In this document: positions 4,041 through 27,816 of the stretch, piece by piece
How the letters are laid out: each line of letters begins with the position of its first letter
Position numbering within the stretch: position 1 is the first letter of the stretch
Origin: Candidatus Altimarinota bacterium
GTDB lineage: Bacteria > Patescibacteriota > JACMRA01
DNA length: 33,316 bases
Direction: 5' to 3'
Assembly (NCBI GenBank): GCA_012031925.1
Contig: JAAUSE010000009.1
Location: forward strand, 1 to 33,316
Made by a program: the position numbers and the translations under genes
The notes under the pieces: model-generated
Database searches by the model: none
Told to the model about the DNA's origin: nothing
Seen by the model: the letters and a program-made list of their open reading frames with translations, nothing else

Positions 4041-5265
4041 TAAAGGAATTTAGTTTTTTGGATATGGTTTTAGCTTCTTTGGTACTGACATTAATTCCAT
4101 TGGGAAGATTGAGTGATTGTATGGCTAGTTTTTGTGCATTTGGACAAGAATTTAACTCATATTTAACAGATTTTAAATCTGTATCTTTTGGCATGATTAC
4201 GTTGTCAAACCATGTACCTAGTTGAATATTATGATCTAAAAAATGATTATAGATAGTTCTTGGATTAGGCACCAGAACTGTATATCTCAAAAAAATAGAT
4301 TCTGATAAAATAGAAGGACTAGGTGGGGAGACTTTTTTACTAAGATTTGTGTGATATATTTTGGCAAGTTTGATGCGATGATTGTTGTATTGATCTAGTT
4401 TTTGTAATTGAAGATTGGCAACTTTGTGTAATATTCCTGACAACTTATAGGTTTGGTTGGTTGGTTTTTTGCCAAATTTTTCAGATTCTTGAATTGGCTT
4501 TGATATTAGTTTGATTAGAAGTGCTGATCTTATAATTATTCTACCAATTTTCAAAAAATTGTATGTGGGTTTGACAATTGCTAAAATTATTGGATGAGCT
4601 AATTGCTGAAATGTCCAAAAATTTGGAGGACTTGGTAGCTCCTTATATAACTCTTTAACTTTTTTGAGTAATCTTTGATTATTGATTGTTAGAACCCCCC
4701 CAGAAGTTGAGGAAATAACTTTGTCTCTACCTAGACTAAAAATAGCAGCATCACCAAAACTTCCCGTATATTTGTTTTTGTATTTTGTTCCAAGAGAATG
4801 GGCACAATCTTCAATAACAATAAGATTATTTTTTTTAGCTATGTTTAATATTTTAGTTAATTTAGCAGGTTGTCCAAAGGTATGTTGGATGATTAATACT
4901 TTTGAGTTAGGATTGATTTTTTTTTGAAGATCTTTAATGCTAATGTTAAAATCATCTTCATCACAATCAACATACTTTGGCTGAGCCCCAACCCATAGTA
5001 TTGGATTAACAAGAGCGACACAAGTATAGGCTTGTAGAATAATCTCATCATTTTTAGAAAGATTTAAAGATTTTAACACGATATAAAGTCCACTTCTTGC
5101 TGAATCAAAAGTGAAACTGTTTTTTAGTTGGAGTTTTTGATTAAAATTATTAACAAATTTTTTTTGATATTTACTTGAATTCCATTTCCAAGGTTGTAAT
5201 ATAGACTTAATGGCTAAAAATAAGTCATTTTTTTGTGTATTAGGTGAAAGAGAGGTGAAGATCAT
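4021..5265 (-). CDS. DegT/DnrJ/EryC1/StrS-family PLP-dependent aminotransferase, 414 aa
   Basis: Fold-type I aminotransferase of the sugar aminotransferase family. Seen: an N-terminal SARSGLYIVLKSL segment (like the SGTxAL cofactor-phosphate region), QAYTCVALVNPILWVGA, IQHTFGQPA, VIEDCAHSLGT (about residue 155, the PLP-ring Asp), and FSLGRDKVISSTSGGVL (about residue 181, whose Lys is the expected Schiff-base residue). The length is normal. Members usually aminate a keto-sugar nucleotide, but some act in other pathways. It follows the transglutaminase-like gene by 14 bases on the same strand, so the two are probably cotranscribed. The substrate cannot be named. Confidence 0.85.
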   Translation of the reverse strand: MIFTSLSPNTQKNDLFLAIKSILQPWKWNSSKYQKKFVNNFNQKLQLKNSFTFDSARSGLYIVLKSLNLSKNDEIILQAYTCVALVNPILWVGAQPKYVDCDEDDFNISIKDLQKKINPNSKVLIIQHTFGQPAKLTKILNIAKKNNLIVIEDCAHSLGTKYKNKYTGSFGDAAIFSLGRDKVISSTSGGVLTINNQRLLKKVKELYKELPSPPNFWTFQQLAHPIILAIVKPTYNFLKIGRIIIRSALLIKLISKPIQESEKFGKKPTNQTYKLSGILHKVANLQLQKLDQYNNHRIKLAKIYHTNLSKKVSPPSPSILSESIFLRYTVLVPNPRTIYNHFLDHNIQLGTWFDNVIMPKDTDLKSVKYELNSCPNAQKLAIQSLNLPNGINVSTKEAKTISKKLNSFIDNQFK

Positions 5266-6948: not shown

Positions 6949-8229
6949 TTAATTCCATTTTGTTTTTTTCTCAAAATCGATTATGTGTGGGTCAGTTTTG
7001 ATGTCACTAACTTTGATTGGTTTACGAAGACTTAGACCTTCAAGAGATGTGCATCTAGAAAAAGCCACATAAGTTTGTCCAAAAACAAAAGAACCTACAC
7101 CCATATCAATTATACAACTGTCAAATGTCTGACCTTGAGATTTGTGAATAGTAACTGCCCAGGCTAGTTTGATAGGGAATTGAGTGAATGAGCCAATTAC
7201 AACTTTCTCTAGTTTTTGATTTTTTTCGTTGAACTCATATTTGTTAATTTCCCAAGCCTCTTCTGTTATTTTGATTTTTTTGCCATTGGGTAATTTGACT
7301 ACAATATAATCTTTGTATAAACTGTCAATTTTGCCTATAGTTCCGTTGACCCAATTCCGCTCTAAGTCATTTTTTATAAACATTATTTGAGCTTTTTCTT
7401 TGAGAACAAGGTATTTGTCTGTGGGGAAAGTTTCTTTTTTGAAATCACCTTCTATTATTGCTTTGTAGGATCTAACTTCACCACTTAGTGACTCTAGTTT
7501 GGTGTGATTGAATTTGGTCACATCAAGATTTCTTGTGGCTATGGTTACAGGGAGAGATTTATTTTTTATTGGTTTGTTAACTAGATTTGTATTTATCCAC
7601 TTAATTAAACTAGGATTTTGAATGCCGTAGCGAAGATATGAAAGTAATTTGATATACTGTGAATCTTCTTGTCGATATATTTGAGTGAGTTTAAAAAAAT
7701 TCAATTTGAGATCAAAAAAGACTTTGGCTGCGAAAAAATACTCACAATAGTATAACTTGCTGTATTCAGTTTTTTGATCTGCTCGAAGAATTGGCGGAAG
7801 CTGAAAATGATCTCCAATTAGTATTAACTGAAGCCCTCCAAAAGGTTTTTTATTACCTATGTTTATTTGAAAAAAAATATTCATTGCATCCAAAGTATCT
7901 GCTCGAACCATTGAAATTTCATCAATAATTATTGTATCTAGGGCCTTGAGCTTTTTTCGGGATTTGAGTCTGTGAATTTTATTGTCTTGGATTATTTTGA
8001 AACCAGGATCTAGACTGAACTTGCAAAAACTATGTATAGTCTCACCTCCAACATTAATTGCTGATAGACCAGTTGGAGCTAAAATAGCTGTATTTTTGGT
8101 AGTTTTGGAAATAAAATCGCGTAGTAAAGTAGATTTACCAGTTCCAGCTTCACCAGTCAGATAGATATTTTTGGAAGTTTTGTTCATCATCCTAAGAGCT
8201 TTGATTGCGACCTTGTTTTTCTTGAACAT
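6949..8229 (-). CDS. Pif1/RecD2-like superfamily 1B DNA helicase, 426 aa
   Basis: Helicase motifs appear in order: Walker A GEAGTGKST (about residues 27-35), APTGLSAINVGGETIHSF (motif Ia, typical of Pif1), DEISM (motif II, about 104), GDHFQLPP (motif III), QIYRQ (motif IV-like), VTIHKSQGQTFD (motif V) and YVAFSRCTSLEGL (motif VI). These are the hallmarks of 5'-3' SF1B helicases of the Pif1 group. The length is short for full RecD2 but normal for compact bacterial Pif1-like proteins. The frame is intact. Likely acts on forked or structured DNA during replication or repair, ATP-dependent, cytoplasmic. Start ATG at 8227-8229; a TAAAAT box lies shortly upstream. Confidence 0.9.
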   Translation of the reverse strand: MFKKNKVAIKALRMMNKTSKNIYLTGEAGTGKSTLLRDFISKTTKNTAILAPTGLSAINVGGETIHSFCKFSLDPGFKIIQDNKIHRLKSRKKLKALDTIIIDEISMVRADTLDAMNIFFQINIGNKKPFGGLQLILIGDHFQLPPILRADQKTEYSKLYYCEYFFAAKVFFDLKLNFFKLTQIYRQEDSQYIKLLSYLRYGIQNPSLIKWINTNLVNKPIKNKSLPVTIATRNLDVTKFNHTKLESLSGEVRSYKAIIEGDFKKETFPTDKYLVLKEKAQIMFIKNDLERNWVNGTIGKIDSLYKDYIVVKLPNGKKIKITEEAWEINKYEFNEKNQKLEKVVIGSFTQFPIKLAWAVTIHKSQGQTFDSCIIDMGVGSFVFGQTYVAFSRCTSLEGLSLRKPIKVSDIKTDPHIIDFEKKTKWN

Positions 8230-9043: not shown

Positions 9044-9058
9044 CAAATAAGAATTTTT

Positions 9059-9084
9059 AGTACTTTTTATTAAGTACTTTTTTT
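9059..9084 (+). terminator. Terminator of the 8321-9043 gene
   Basis: AGTACTT (9059-9065) pairs with AAGTACT (9072-9078) around six bases and is followed by six T (9079-9084), 16 bases after the proposed stop. Confidence 0.7.
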
Positions 9085-9120
9085 GTTGCTATAATTGGTG
9101 TTTTGTGTTTATATAAAAAT

Positions 9121-9921
9121 ATGAATGAACTAGTACCAGCCTCACAATGGATATTACAAAAATATTTTGAGCTTGAAAAAAAATTAGATAAACATTTGAA
9201 AGATTATGAAATTGCTCACAGTATTGATGCTTTGGAGAGTTTTTTGTGGGATGATTTTGCTAATTGGTATGTAGAGTATCTCAAAACTGATCAGACTCAG
9301 ATAAAGTTTGCAAAGGAATTGTACAAGCAATTTGTAATAACTATTAGTCCTTATATGCCTTTTGAAACTCAGGCTTTGTGGGAGGGGTTTTTTGGTGAAA
9401 AAACTCTATTGGCTAATTATAAAAAAGACTTAGGTTGGGGTAGAGAATATGTTATAGAGTATGTTGAAGAATTTGAATTGATAAAAAGTGTAGTCGAAAA
9501 GCTTAGATCTCTTCGAGGTTTGTTTGCTATTGACCCTGCGACGAGAATAACTGTTTATTCTGGTTCTCAGTTATTACAAAAATATTCACAATATCTTGGA
9601 TTTATTGCTAAGTGTGATGTGAAGAAATTTAATGATGGTAAATTGTATGAAGTAAAAATTAACCAAGCAAATAGCTTTGGAATAGATATTTTGAGTTATG
9701 TGATGGATAGGGTTGAAGAAATTAATAAAACCAATAAAGAAATTGCTTCCTTGGAAAAACAAATTGGTGGTCTAGAGAAAAAATTAAGCAACTTAAAATT
9801 TATCGAGCATGCTTCCGTTGAAACTGTAGAGGAATCCAAAGAAAATTTGAGTCAAAGAAAAATTGAATTAGAGAATCAACGAGAAAAACTGGAGGTTTTG
9901 AATGATAAGAATGAAGATTAA
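9121..9921 (+). CDS. Free-standing C-terminal half of valyl-tRNA synthetase (anticodon-binding domain plus coiled-coil arm), 267 aa
   Basis: Residues 1-115 match the class I synthetase anticodon-binding domain: ASQWILQKYFELEKKL, then LESFLWDDFANWYVEYLK and SPYMPFETQALWEGFF. The last 70 residues (MDRVEEINKTNKEIASLEK, KLSNLKF, then Glu/Lys heptads) match the ValRS C-terminal tRNA arm. The catalytic Rossmann domain, editing domain, HIGH and KMSKS are all absent, and nothing in the upstream 120 bases encodes them in any frame: a terminator lies there instead. The frame is intact and starts at ATG 9121; a TATAAT (9090-9095) and a TATATA near 9111 are candidate -10 boxes. It may be the second half of a split ValRS, a tRNA-binding paralogue, or a remnant. 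The genome's main valS is not in this window. Confidence 0.75.
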   Translation: MNELVPASQWILQKYFELEKKLDKHLKDYEIAHSIDALESFLWDDFANWYVEYLKTDQTQIKFAKELYKQFVITISPYMPFETQALWEGFFGEKTLLANYKKDLGWGREYVIEYVEEFELIKSVVEKLRSLRGLFAIDPATRITVYSGSQLLQKYSQYLGFIAKCDVKKFNDGKLYEVKINQANSFGIDILSYVMDRVEEINKTNKEIASLEKQIGGLEKKLSNLKFIEHASVETVEESKENLSQRKIELENQREKLEVLNDKNED

Positions 9922-11803: not shown

Positions 11804-13593
11804 ATGAATACAATAACCACAACCACTCCTAGCCCGTTTGCCAAAAATGATATTAATCTTCCTGTTCCGATTAGGCCTGATATTTGTTATATTGGCAGAG
11901 TTAGTGATAGGGGTGTGACTAAAGAATATGGGATTTTGCAAGATGATCGCCGCCGTCATATGTACATATTAGGAAAGTCTGGTATGGGTAAGTCTACTTT
12001 GCTTGAAAACATGATACTTCAGGATATATATAATGGTCATGGAGTATGTTTTATTGATCCTCACGGAGACTCCTCACATTATATTTTGGATCATATTCCT
12101 TCTTGGAGAACTAACGATGTGGTTTATTTTAATCCTGGAGATATGGAGTATCCTATTGGATTCAACATGCTTGAAGCTCAAAGAGGAGAGCAAGCTTTTT
12201 TGATAACTTCAGGTATGATGGCTATTTTTGGTCGTATTTGGGAAGGTGCTTGGTCTGCTCGTATGGAATATATTTTGAATAATACTTTACTGGCACTATT
12301 GGAAACATCAGGAAACACTTTGTTAGGGGTTGTTAGATTACTTACTGATAATGATTTTCGTGAAATAATTATTCGCAATATTCAGGATCCGATGGTACGT
12401 AATTTTTGGGTCAAAGAGTTTGCTTCATTTAACGACAAATATCGTACTGAAGCTATAGCCCCAATTCTTAATAAAATTGGTCAGTTTTTCTCTACCGATC
12501 TTATACGTAATATTTTGGGACAAACTCGCTCCACGATTGATTTTCGTCATATAATGGATGATAAAAAAATTTTGATAGTGAATTTATCTAAGGGTTCAAT
12601 TGGTGAGGATAATTCTAACCTACTTGGTTCTTTCTTGATCACTAAGCTGCAATTAGCTGCTATGAGTAGGGTTGATATGCCTGAGGCAGCTCGTAACGAC
12701 TTTTATCTCTATGTGGATGAGTTTCAAAACTTTACAACAGACTCTTTTGCAACAATTTTGTCGGAAGCAAGAAAATATAGACTTAATTTGGTTCTAGCTC
12801 ACCAATATATTGCACAACTTACTGAGAGTGGTAATGACAAAGTTCGTAATGCGATTTTTGGTAATGTCTCTACAATGATAAGCTTTCGAGTAGGTTCTGA
12901 TGATGGAGAAGTTTTGGAAAAAGAATATGAACCAATATTTGTTTCACCTCAATTATTAGCTCTTAACAAGTTTCAAATAGCTTTGAAGTTGTCGATTCAT
13001 GGTAAACCTTCTTTACCTTTTATGTCCAATACACTTCCGCCAATATTTAATGATTATGGTGGTTCTTATGATAAGGTTGTTCAGCAGTCGCGAGAAAGAA
13101 ACGCTGTGATAAAAAGTAAGGCTAAGAAAAAAATTGATGATTGGCTTAATAAAGATTACAGTCTGATCATAGAAGAAGAGAAAAAAAAGAAGCAAGAGAT
13201 TTATGAAAAGAAAAAGGCTGGTCGAGAGAAAAAAGGGCCACTTTCTGAAGAAGAAATTGAAGCTATTAGAGAACAGAGAAGAGTTGAACGTAAAGAAAAG
13301 AAAAAGCACAATCCTTTTTTACAAAAAACTCGCGATGATAGGGATCAACAATCTTTAAACAACTCTTCTAAATTTTCTAAAAAACAGCACGAGAAAAACA
13401 ATAGTACTGTTAAGTATTCAAAAAAATATCTAAAGATTTTGATAATAACTTTTCTAAGGGTTATTCCAAGAAAGATCCTCAGAAATCCCCTAACAAAGAA
13501 AATATTGATATTTCAACAAAACCAACTTCGGCTAATCAAAAGACAAAACAGCTACTTGATAAGTTAAGGTCTCTCAAAGGTGGTAGTAAATAA
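11804..13593 (+). CDS. VirD4/TraM-recognition-type conjugation or secretion ATPase, about 596 aa, C-terminal frame change
   Basis: P-loop ATPase of the HerA/VirD4/TraG superfamily. Seen: Walker A GKSGMGKST (about residues 57-65), FIDPHGDSSHYIL, FNPGDMEYPIGFNML, Walker B YLYVDEFQNF (about 303), and AHQYIAQL (TraM/TraG recognition region). The C-terminal 130 residues are a Lys/Glu-rich charged helix. The frame changes at the A7 run 13420-13426: with one more A the protein ends SKDFDNNFSKGY to DKLRSLKGGSK and stops at 13591-13593; without it a low-complexity tail ends at 13567. Such ATPases are common in CPR genomes and probably power DNA or protein transfer at the membrane. The membrane protein at 22525-23756 is a candidate partner. 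Confidence 0.8.
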
Positions 13594-24558: not shown

Positions 24559-27500
24559 TTATTTAACTTGAAGTAATTCTCCTGATATTTTGTTTTGAGC
24601 TTTAACTTGAGTACCATCATTCAATGTGTAAGTTATTTCTATAGGGTATTCTTTGAGTGGATTAAGTCCATTTTGTTCAATGGCTACTAGATTACCAAGT
24701 TCATTAGATTCAAATTTGTATTGGTTATCACCATCGTATAAAGTTGCAGATAAATCTTTAGTAGCACCTAAGATGTTGATATTGCAAGGGTATGAATTGC
24801 ACCATTGTATGGTTGGAATTTTATTATCAGTTATAGAGACTTTATATTCACCAGTTACAAAACCATTTTTTTCAAAGTTAAGCATGTATTGATCTTTTTG
24901 ACCAGAGATTTCAACATAACATATCCCAGCTTGATAATGTGATTTGGTTAGAATTGAACCAACAAGATTACTTTGTTGTAAAACATTACAATTATCAGTA
25001 GCAAATGCAAAAATGTTAACTTGATCTGAACTAACCAAGTTAGTTGCATTAATAACTTTAACTTGCCCACTCTGATTAGCAATGTTGTAGTTATCCATGA
25101 ATAGGCTAAGGTTATTATTAGAATTAATCGAAGTAACACTTGCTTTTGCACTAAGGTTTAGTTCCAAAAAGCTCTTGTCCAGATCTGTTCTAATATCTTG
25201 ATTATCAAGCTTATCTGCTGATAACTCTAAGCTTGCTTGTGAATTATTGATGTTTACTTCTTCAGCTTTACCATTGTATTCTATTCTAAGGGTTTTATCA
25301 TTAATGGTTTGACCTTGATTATCAACTATAGGGCTAGTGATTAGTTTGATTACTAGATCATCTTGCTCATTAAGTCTTACTTCAGGGTTAAGAGTAAAGC
25401 TATTTGAAGCTTCAGAAGCAGTATTATTTACTACTTGAGCAAAACTTTTTTGACCAGCTTGAAGAAGAAGTAGAGCTTGTTGATTATCTCTTAGAACTTC
25501 AAGTTCAAAATCAAATTCACAAGTGTAATTACTATTAACAGAAGTTTTATTCTCAATTAACTCATTTTTACTTCTTTGGTAAATGAGTTTGCACTCATTA
25601 GCTTCAGGATCTGCTTCGGTTACAAAATTAGCTACAATATTGTCATCAGAGTTTAGAGTAGTTGGTAAATTTGGTAAATTTAAAGGAGAGATGATCTCGT
25701 GTGCATTAATTGTTTTGACTAGTTCTTCATTACCCTCGTTGTCAAGCATTTTAACTGTCATTTCTTCAGAGTTGATTACTGATGATGGGATGGTAAGTTG
25801 AGCAAAACCGTCAAATATATCAACATTTTTTTGATATTGTAATCCTTCTTTACTTTCAATAATGATTTGATTCTTGAGTGAATCAGTTAGATTTCCATAT
25901 CCATCTGTAACAGGACCAATTATTAGAGTGTTAGCGTGGTTAATTCTTGCAGGTAAATATTCAAAATTAATATCACCTAAAGTTGTAGCATTTCCAGGTT
26001 TGATGATGAATTGTCTTGATTGATTTATATCATTGCTTATTGTTGATCCTTGGAAAGTAACTGTTATAGGTCCAGATTTAGTTATAGTACCTGCTGTTGC
26101 TTCTACACTACAATTACCATTTTTAATTTGACCACTAAGTAAGATAGGTGAGTTAAGAGGGTCTGTTGTGTAGATTTCTGCTTGGCAATCACCTAACTCT
26201 ATTATATTTCCATTACGATCCAAAATATTTTGAACAGTGAATGTAATGTTTTTGTCTACTTGAAGATTATCTAGGCTGTTAACAATTACACCAGATCCAG
26301 CAATTCCAGCTTTGTTATCGTTGAAATTTAAGTTAATAAAGTCTGTTTGTGATCCATCACTTAGTTTGGCAAAAACTTGATACAGACCTCCTTTTTCAAA
26401 ATATTCACCTGGAACTGTTGCTTTTATGGTACTATTTTCACTTATATAATCATCGGCTCCATTGTTGCTTACTTCTTTGTATTCTCCAGAATTAGTGTGA
26501 AGAATTCCAATAGATGCTTTGGTATCATTGTTGGCAATTTTGTTTATTTCTAACTCAATTGGCTTATTTTGCTTAAGTATTAGAGTTTTATCAGCTATTG
26601 GTAGCAGAGCTACAGGCTTATTGAGGATTGAAATATCTTGTGAGAGATTTGTCCCATCAAGTGTAATATTATAGATTCCTTCACCTGGTAGTTGACTCGC
26701 TAAAAGATTAGTTTGACAAGCTCTATTTGATTGAACTTGGGTTTTTAGTTGAAGTATTTCTTGACCTTCTTTGGAGATTTTAAAGTTACACATATCGCCA
26801 TTTTGAGGTGTTGAGTTGAGACCTACAAGGTTGGTTGCATATATTGGTACTGATCCGTTGATAGATACATTAGAGAATGGAAGGCTAAGACTGGACTCAG
26901 CAGAAGGAGTAAAGCTAGAGTTGTCACTACCTACCACTTGGAATTGAGAAATTGTACTTGGTTTTTGAGATTCATCTAAGAATAAGGCGGAATAACTTCC
27001 AGATTTTAGTTCGTTGGTTTTTGCTTCACATTTAGCATTTTCATCAAATGTACAATTAATTGAATCAACTACGTTTTGAGTAATTTGGTTACTGATATAA
27101 ATTTTTCCAGTATTAAATTCACCATCAATTGCAGAGTTATTTGGGTTGGTTATTTCAAAAACAACTTCTTCACTAGGATTATATGAGTTTTTGTCATTAC
27201 TTAGAGAATAAAGGTTATTTGAATCACTACTAGTGACATCATTACCTACAAAAAGTCTGTTAGATTCATTAACTTCGCGACCTCTTTGGTTATTGTAAGC
27301 AAGTTTGGTTAGGATACTGATTGAGTCAAAATTATGGTTTTGTACAGAGCCATTTATTTTGTAATCTGCTTTTTCTCCAGCTCCTAAGAAAGGAATAGTT
27401 GTTTGATTTTCTTCATTAACTTGGTAGGTTTGACCACTGGAAAGTTTGGTTTTGGAACTAACTTGGTTCCAGTTGATAACATTTTCGGTAGATAAAAGTG

Positions 27501-27816
27501 AAACATTTATATCGTTAATTGATTCATTTTGACTAGTGTTTTGTAGAGTTAAAGATAATTCTACTTGTTCGCCAATTTGGAGTTCTTGACCTTCTTCAAG
27601 ATTAATTACAGATGCAATGAATGCAGGTTGATTAGCTTGCGCTGGTTCTTGTATAGAATTGAAAAGCCCGATACCAATAACAGTAGCTAACATTACATAG
27701 ACTGAACTAATACTGATTATAAGTTGTCTTTTGTGTTTGTTTCGAAAAATTTTGTGGAAAACCCCACGACTTCTTTTTGGACTAGAAGTAATCTTATAAA
27801 TGGTTTTTTTTGCCAT
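24559..27816 (-). CDS. Large cell-surface protein with repeated beta-sandwich-like modules, 1085 aa
   Basis: A basic N-terminus (about 30 residues, KRSRGVFHKIFRNKHKR) precedes one membrane span (about 31-53), so most of the chain is probably outside. The rest is Ser/Asn/Thr/Gln-rich with alternating beta-strand patterns. Several modules carry a spaced Cys pair about 6-30 residues apart, then a GxY- or GxI-type strand, for example MCNFKISKEGQ with RACQTNLLAS, DCQAEIYTTD with NCSVEATAG, ECKLIYQRSK with TCEFDFELE, and NCNVLQQSNL with ICYVEISGQ; these suggest disulfide-bonded Ig-like domains. No sortase or S-layer motif is seen. It is one intact frame of 3.2 kb, unlike many neighbours. An S-layer-like, adhesin or host-contact role is inference only. 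Confidence 0.7.
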   Translation of the reverse strand: MAKKTIYKITSSPKRSRGVFHKIFRNKHKRQLIISISSVYVMLATVIGIGLFNSIQEPAQANQPAFIASVINLEEGQELQIGEQVELSLTLQNTSQNESINDINVSLLSTENVINWNQVSSKTKLSSGQTYQVNEENQTTIPFLGAGEKADYKINGSVQNHNFDSISILTKLAYNNQRGREVNESNRLFVGNDVTSSDSNNLYSLSNDKNSYNPSEEVVFEITNPNNSAIDGEFNTGKIYISNQITQNVVDSINCTFDENAKCEAKTNELKSGSYSALFLDESQKPSTISQFQVVGSDNSSFTPSAESSLSLPFSNVSINGSVPIYATNLVGLNSTPQNGDMCNFKISKEGQEILQLKTQVQSNRACQTNLLASQLPGEGIYNITLDGTNLSQDISILNKPVALLPIADKTLILKQNKPIELEINKIANNDTKASIGILHTNSGEYKEVSNNGADDYISENSTIKATVPGEYFEKGGLYQVFAKLSDGSQTDFINLNFNDNKAGIAGSGVIVNSLDNLQVDKNITFTVQNILDRNGNIIELGDCQAEIYTTDPLNSPILLSGQIKNGNCSVEATAGTITKSGPITVTFQGSTISNDINQSRQFIIKPGNATTLGDINFEYLPARINHANTLIIGPVTDGYGNLTDSLKNQIIIESKEGLQYQKNVDIFDGFAQLTIPSSVINSEEMTVKMLDNEGNEELVKTINAHEIISPLNLPNLPTTLNSDDNIVANFVTEADPEANECKLIYQRSKNELIENKTSVNSNYTCEFDFELEVLRDNQQALLLLQAGQKSFAQVVNNTASEASNSFTLNPEVRLNEQDDLVIKLITSPIVDNQGQTINDKTLRIEYNGKAEEVNINNSQASLELSADKLDNQDIRTDLDKSFLELNLSAKASVTSINSNNNLSLFMDNYNIANQSGQVKVINATNLVSSDQVNIFAFATDNCNVLQQSNLVGSILTKSHYQAGICYVEISGQKDQYMLNFEKNGFVTGEYKVSITDNKIPTIQWCNSYPCNINILGATKDLSATLYDGDNQYKFESNELGNLVAIEQNGLNPLKEYPIEITYTLNDGTQVKAQNKISGELLQVK

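What the first reader, a model, noticed from the sequence alone, without database searches (positions are those of the whole stretch)
9121..9921. A free-standing ValRS anticodon-binding domain and tRNA arm
An intact gene encodes only the C-terminal half of valyl-tRNA synthetase, with no catalytic part nearby and a terminator directly upstream. A split ValRS, with the catalytic half elsewhere, or a stand-alone tRNA-binding protein would both be unusual.
Basis: partly seen in the sequence, partly recalled or inferred. Interest (0 to 1): 0.65.

Follow-up and report, generated by a model that had tools for sequence, protein, structure and literature searches.

The report
Valyl-tRNA synthetase split between two genes
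In two genera of tiny uncultured Patescibacteria, the essential enzyme that loads valine onto its tRNA is encoded as two separate genes, a catalytic part and a tRNA-gripping part, so the cell must join them after translation; split tRNA synthetases are rare and I found no published case for valine.

Summary
Window 9121-9921(+) is an intact 266-aa gene for the anticodon-binding domain plus tRNA-binding arm of valyl-tRNA synthetase (ValRS positions 592-859 of 860) and nothing else. It is one half of a split ValRS, not a decayed fragment. The host (1.07-Mb Patescibacteria MAG, about 80% complete) has no complete valS; the only other piece found is the valS N-terminus, running off the end of contig C9. 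The nearest relative, from another genus (G004), has the same split resolved on one contig: a 712-aa catalytic/editing gene with its own stop (ValRS 2-577) and, 3 kb away past three unrelated ORFs, a 262-aa C-terminal gene (591-859) starting at the same residue. The two split lineages form a clade in ValRS-N, ValRS-C and rpoB trees, with an unsplit relative (G003) as sister: one fission, then retention in both lineages although the proteins are now 52-60% identical, with no speed-up of the stand-alone part. In 287 phylum genomes, none of the other listed matches stands alone away from a contig edge. Most likely the halves reassemble non-covalently into a working ValRS (inferred, untested). Precedents exist for LeuRS, AlaRS and PheRS-beta; none found for ValRS. 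Not seen: the 3' end of this genome's own catalytic gene.

The parts
9121..9921 (+). valS-C: stand-alone ValRS anticodon-binding domain + C-terminal tRNA arm (266 aa), ATG start homologous to the ATG of the split gene in G004
9145..9555 (+). Anticodon_1 (PF08264) domain, residues 9-145
9715..9900 (+). Val_tRNA-synt_C (PF10458) coiled-coil tRNA-binding arm, residues 199-260
   Evidence: helices 197-223 and 233-261 in the AF2 model, mostly with pLDDT above 90
9059..9085 (+). terminator-like hairpin (AGTACTT/AAGTACT) + T run directly upstream, separating valS-C from upstream ORFs
   Evidence: -6.3 kcal/mol, z -2.15; not called by the consensus scan
9090..9095 (+). TATAAT, possible -10 element 25 nt before the ATG (short-leader transcript); no good -35 found
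   Evidence: read from sequence; consensus scan found no promoter here; inference
9058..9060 (+). in-frame TAG stop upstream: the open frame starts at 9061, so valS-C is not the tail of a longer ORF

Best explanation
Window 9121-9921 is the C-terminal half of a naturally split valyl-tRNA synthetase. valS was broken once, in the common ancestor of two Patescibacteria genera, in the variable linker between the last helix of the catalytic part (NFGNK-WNVARFL) and the first helix of the anticodon-binding bundle (ASQWILQ). The catalytic/editing gene (HIGH and KMSKS motifs, CP1 editing domain) makes Val-AMP, charges tRNA-Val and proofreads. The product of 9121-9921 binds the anticodon and the tRNA body through the coiled-coil arm. 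The two chains are made from separate transcripts and assemble without a covalent link, through the native domain interface and/or around tRNA-Val, because neither half carries a docking extension, an intein or intron-like sequence. Shown: the gene, its domains, the absence of another valS copy among the sequence held, the same split resolved on one contig in G004, a single origin, and retention. Inferred: assembly into one enzyme, separate promoters, essentiality. Not seen: the 3' end of the catalytic gene in this genome.
For: (1) Complementary halves in G004: 712 aa = ValRS profile 2-577 and 262 aa = 591-859 of 860, both with own start and stop on one contig, three unrelated ORFs between, two of them on the other strand. 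The C gene starts MTELAPASQWILQ, matching MNELVPASQWILQ here. (2) G000: valS N-part on C9, 62% identical to the G004 catalytic gene; no other valS. (3) G000+G004 are one clade in rpoB (91/92), N (100/99), C (97/92), N+C (100/99), with unsplit G003 as sister in rpoB, N and N+C; alternatives rejected, p-AU 0.0015 and 0.0023; C with outgroups 96/97. (4) Columns invariant in fused relatives are kept at 0.78-0.86 in the split pair against 0.72-0.83 in fused members; branch lengths are not inflated. (5) 287-genome survey: the other listed matches are in long ORFs, at contig edges, or (G005) interrupted by one TAG. (6) Hairpin before valS-C in both genomes; hairpin after valS-N and TTGACG-18-TATAGT before it in G004. 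(7) No ValRS catalytic sequence upstream of 9121 in any frame.
Against: The G000 catalytic gene runs off its contig, so its own stop at the split point is not seen; the middle (about ValRS 290-590) is missing from the assembly. That fragment has a 1-nt frameshift about 120 bases from the contig end. ileS and probably leuS in this MAG also have frameshifts, which I read as assembly errors. Both genomes are incomplete MAGs (about 80% and 68%), so an extra full-length valS cannot be strictly excluded. No biochemical evidence of assembly. The G000 promoter was not found by the consensus scan. The table is cut off, so weak matches were not all seen.
Confidence: 0.87

Rival explanations
1. Stand-alone tRNA-binding paralogue: the genome has a full-length valS (cut at the end of C9) and the window gene is an extra copy of the C-terminal region with an auxiliary or regulatory role (like Arc1p or Trbp111).
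For: The C9 copy is cut by the contig end, so a full-length gene in G000 is formally possible.
Against: In G004 the catalytic gene ends at the split point with its own stop, and only one C-terminal gene is found. Only one ValRS C-terminal region was found in each of the six genomes of the class. Both halves group G000 with G004, and the stand-alone gene evolves no faster than the domain inside fused ValRS.
Confidence: 0.06
2. Degenerate or dispensable remnant, or an assembly chimera that cut a normal valS in two.
For: G000 is a fragmented MAG with several frameshifts.
Against: Intact 266-aa ORF with its start at the homologous residue of an independent assembly from another genus. Conserved columns retained. 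The window copy is about 9 kb from its contig end and the G004 copies are also interior. No N-part sequence upstream.
Confidence: 0.03
3. The two halves are joined at RNA or protein level (trans-splicing intron or split intein) so that a single normal ValRS chain is made.
For: Not excluded by sequence alone in incomplete genomes; trans-splicing of tRNA halves is known in Nanoarchaeum (PMC3491384).
Against: In G004 the catalytic half ends WNVARFLKD-stop and the C half begins with an ATG at the domain start; no intein-like extension lies at either junction, and Rfam finds only a tRNA in the window.
Confidence: 0.03

Closest known systems
Split PheRS beta subunit (pheT) of Altiarchaeales (PMC4975002)
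   Same: Conserved fission of a synthetase gene between domains, at a length-variable spot, halves at non-adjacent loci, known from MAGs, monophyletic
   Different: PheRS (class II), archaea; here ValRS (class Ia), Patescibacteria, cut before the anticodon-binding domain; in G004 both halves are placed on one contig
Aquifex aeolicus two-subunit LeuRS (Ma et al. 2006 and Xu et al. 2002, as cited in PMC4975002 and PMC9976931)
   Same: A class Ia synthetase naturally made as two chains
   Different: Different enzyme and, as I recall, cut inside or next to the CP1 insertion; G001's separate valS fission, in CP1, resembles that site more
Split AlaRS of Nanoarchaeum equitans (PMC3491384, citing the genome paper)
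   Same: Split synthetase genes in a reduced, host-dependent genome
   Different: Class II enzyme, archaeon
Thermus thermophilus ValRS (PDB 1gax) C-terminal half
   Same: Same domains in the same order; best match by sequence and by fold
   Different: Part of a single 862-aa chain
Engineered split PheT of Mycoplasma pneumoniae (PMC12494982)
   Same: Shows that a bacterial synthetase chain made as two fragments can support life
   Different: Artificial, another enzyme

Membership tests
Valyl-tRNA synthetase (as the C-terminal half) | Anticodon_1 domain followed by ValRS-specific C-terminal arm | tested here: met
   PF08264 and PF10458 above gathering cut-offs; ValRS model 592-859/860
Valyl-tRNA synthetase (as the C-terminal half) | HIGH/KMSKS catalytic domain in the same chain | tested here: not met
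   None in the ORF or the window
Naturally split aminoacyl-tRNA synthetase | Two ORFs that together cover the whole enzyme without large overlap | tested here: met
   G004: profile 2-577 + 591-859 of 860. In G000 only the N-terminal part (about 1-289) and 592-859 were seen
Naturally split aminoacyl-tRNA synthetase | No undivided copy in the genome | tested here: inconclusive
   None found in G000 or G004, but both MAGs are incomplete
Naturally split aminoacyl-tRNA synthetase | Split conserved across species with retained conserved residues | tested here: met
   Two genera, one origin, residues kept
Naturally split aminoacyl-tRNA synthetase | Subunits associate and aminoacylate tRNA-Val | not testable with these tools
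   Needs expression and assay
Stand-alone tRNA-binding paralogue (Arc1p/Trbp111-like) | Complete synthetase present in addition to the stand-alone domain | tested here: not met
   No complete valS in G000 or G004; caveat of MAG completeness

The most novel reading that the evidence does not exclude
First naturally two-chain ValRS, in a Patescibacteria class whose class Ia synthetases are unusually breakable. The same family shows a second, independent valS fission in the editing domain (G001). Its ValRS and LeuRS genes carry nested HAD, GNAT, NUDIX, Ham1 and serine-hydrolase domains at recurring sites. This suggests relaxed covalent constraint, or selection for modular or regulated synthetases.
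Probability: 0.5. Interest if true: 0.75.

Novelty: new variant of a known kind. Interest (0 to 1): 0.62.

Why it matters
ValRS is essential and is one chain in the bacteria where it has been studied. A natural, old fission just before the anticodon-binding domain gives a direct test of how far the catalytic and anticodon-reading modules of a class Ia synthetase can be uncoupled, a long-standing question about how synthetases were put together. It also offers a natural template for orthogonal split synthetases, and the fission is a clean marker for a clade within an uncultured class. It also warns that annotation pipelines may score valS as fragmentary in such genomes: in G004 the catalytic gene scores below the NCBIfam cut-off.

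Tried and rejected
Searched the window for the missing catalytic part (tblastn): none. Phage and plasmid records gave only weak matches (27% identity or less). IMG/VR gave no relative. G018, G007, G093, G224 and G187 looked like short ValRS C-terminal ORFs but all lie at contig edges. G005 looked split but is one gene interrupted by a single in-frame TAG, so it is not counted. The apparent two-part LeuRS of G000 (C10/C33) is probably an assembly break inside a nested-domain LeuRS. A first outgroup tree (end) translated minus-strand loci on the wrong strand and was discarded; one search replaces it. The neighbourhood gave no functional clue: no synteny between the window and G004 contig C5 around valS-C. 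A structure job for the G004 catalytic half did not finish in time. Literature searches for split ValRS found none, but the library excludes most subscription journals and preprints.

Full report
WHAT IS THERE. The ORF at 9121-9921(+) is intact, begins with ATG and encodes 266 aa. It matches only the last third of ValRS: Anticodon_1 (residues 9-145, E 1.2e-20) and the ValRS-specific tRNA arm (199-260, E 2.1e-8) in Pfam, and positions 592-859 of the 860-position NCBIfam ValRS model. T. thermophilus ValRS (1gax) is the best solved relative by sequence and by fold search of an AF2 model of moderate quality (mean pLDDT 71). A stop codon lies in frame about 60 nt upstream, and no ValRS catalytic sequence occurs in any frame of the window. 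A weak A+T-rich hairpin with a T run lies between it and the upstream ORFs, with a TATAAT 25 nt before the ATG; the consensus scan called neither.

WHERE IS THE REST? The window is contig 28 of a 1.07-Mb, 51-contig Patescibacteria MAG (80.6% complete). Whole-genome search finds one other valS piece: the N-terminal part (model 1-289) on contig 9, running off its left end, with a single frameshift about 120 bases from that end. It is 62% identical to the catalytic gene of G004. The middle (about 290-590) is not in the assembly. No complete valS was found.

THE SAME SPLIT, COMPLETE, IN ANOTHER GENUS. The class of this organism holds six genomes in one family. In G004 (contig CALITC010000005.1) both halves lie on one 66-kb contig: a 712-aa gene ending WNVARFLKD-stop (ValRS 2-577) and a 262-aa gene starting MTELAPASQWILQ (591-859), with three unrelated ORFs between, two on the other strand. 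The start is homologous to the start here. In G004, hairpins follow valS-N and precede valS-C, and a TTGACG-18-TATAGT promoter-like site precedes valS-N. Both halves therefore look like independent transcription units (inference). G003 and G002 have undivided valS (985 and 1297 aa). The junction is a length-variable linker: short in G003, much longer in G001 and G002.

ONE EVENT, THEN RETENTION. G000 and G004 form a clade in rpoB (91/92), ValRS-N (100/99), ValRS-C (97/92) and both ValRS parts together (100/99), with fused G003 as sister in rpoB, N and N+C. Trees that join either split lineage to G003 are rejected (p-AU 0.0015 and 0.0023). With outgroups the C tree keeps the clade (96/97). The two lineages have diverged to 79% identity in rpoB and 52-60% in ValRS, yet the stand-alone part keeps 0.78-0.86 of the positions invariant in fused relatives, as the fused ones do (0.72-0.83), and its branches are not longer. 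That points to long-term purifying selection, not decay. In G003, undivided valS lies next to eno-recX. In G000 the N part is still 1.6 kb from recX-eno, while the C part lies on another contig. So the C part is probably the piece that moved (inference).

HOW RARE? In 287 Patescibacteria genomes, 270 match the C-terminal profile. Among the listed matches (the table is cut off at weak scores) only G000 and G004 have it in a stand-alone ORF away from contig edges. G005 is interrupted by one in-frame TAG and not counted.

HOW IT WORKS. The most likely mechanism is non-covalent reassembly. The catalytic half forms valyl-adenylate, charges and edits. The window protein reads the anticodon and grips the tRNA body. 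Neither half has a docking extension or an intein, so the native interface and tRNA-Val itself must hold them together. Domain roles rest on established knowledge of the ValRS family; assembly is inference. Split synthetases with precedent are PheRS-beta in Altiarchaeales, LeuRS in Aquifex, AlaRS in Nanoarchaeum (PMC4975002; PMC3491384), and an engineered split PheT that supports growth of M. pneumoniae (PMC12494982).

NOVELTY. I found no report of a split ValRS, within an open-access library only. It is a new variant of a known kind. The setting may be the larger story. In the same family G001 has an independent valS fission in the editing region (387 + 1187 aa, both interior to contigs). ValRS and LeuRS carry nested enzyme domains: HAD and NUDIX in G001 ValRS, GNAT in G002 ValRS, NUDIX+Ham1 in G000 and G003 LeuRS, serine hydrolase+NUDIX in G001 LeuRS. 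A GNAT-bearing IleRS is already a named NCBIfam model (ileS_w_GNAT), so such insertions are not without precedent.

LIMITS. Incomplete MAGs, scattered frameshifts in G000, an unseen 3' end of its catalytic gene, and no biochemistry.

Noticed in passing
L072:3878-5038(-) and L073:3365-6925(-) (G001): Second, independent valS fission in the same family, in the CP1/editing region: a 387-aa N gene and a 1187-aa C gene, both interior to different contigs.
   Followed up: partly
L073:3365-6925(-) (G001) and L074:4422-8312(-) (G002): ValRS with nested enzyme domains: HAD_2 and NUDIX plus an alpha/beta-hydrolase-like stretch in G001; a GNAT domain in G002 at the same site as the HAD.
   Followed up: partly
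L003:1-1875(-) (G000), L137 (G003), L143 (G001), L136/L142 (G002): LeuRS genes of the same family also carry nested domains near CP1: NUDIX + Ham1 in G000 and G003, serine hydrolase + NUDIX in G001, an extra unidentified stretch in G002.
   Followed up: partly
L076 near 4809-4811 (G005): Single in-frame TAG in valS (ERSKTPI*PLISEE, where relatives have E): real nonsense mutation, read-through or assembly error not resolved.
   Followed up: no
L069 about 7811-7928, L069 about 110-125, L003 about 1063-1142: Frameshifts in ileS, valS-N and apparently leuS of the window's own MAG, probably assembly errors.
   Followed up: partly
window 6949-8229 (-) and 11804-13567 (+): A RecD/PIF1-like helicase and a VirD4/TraD-like ATPase with a charged tail near the fragment; no sign that they are linked to it.
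   Followed up: no
window 24559-27816 (-): 1085-aa protein with an N-terminal hydrophobic stretch and no Pfam match.
   Followed up: no
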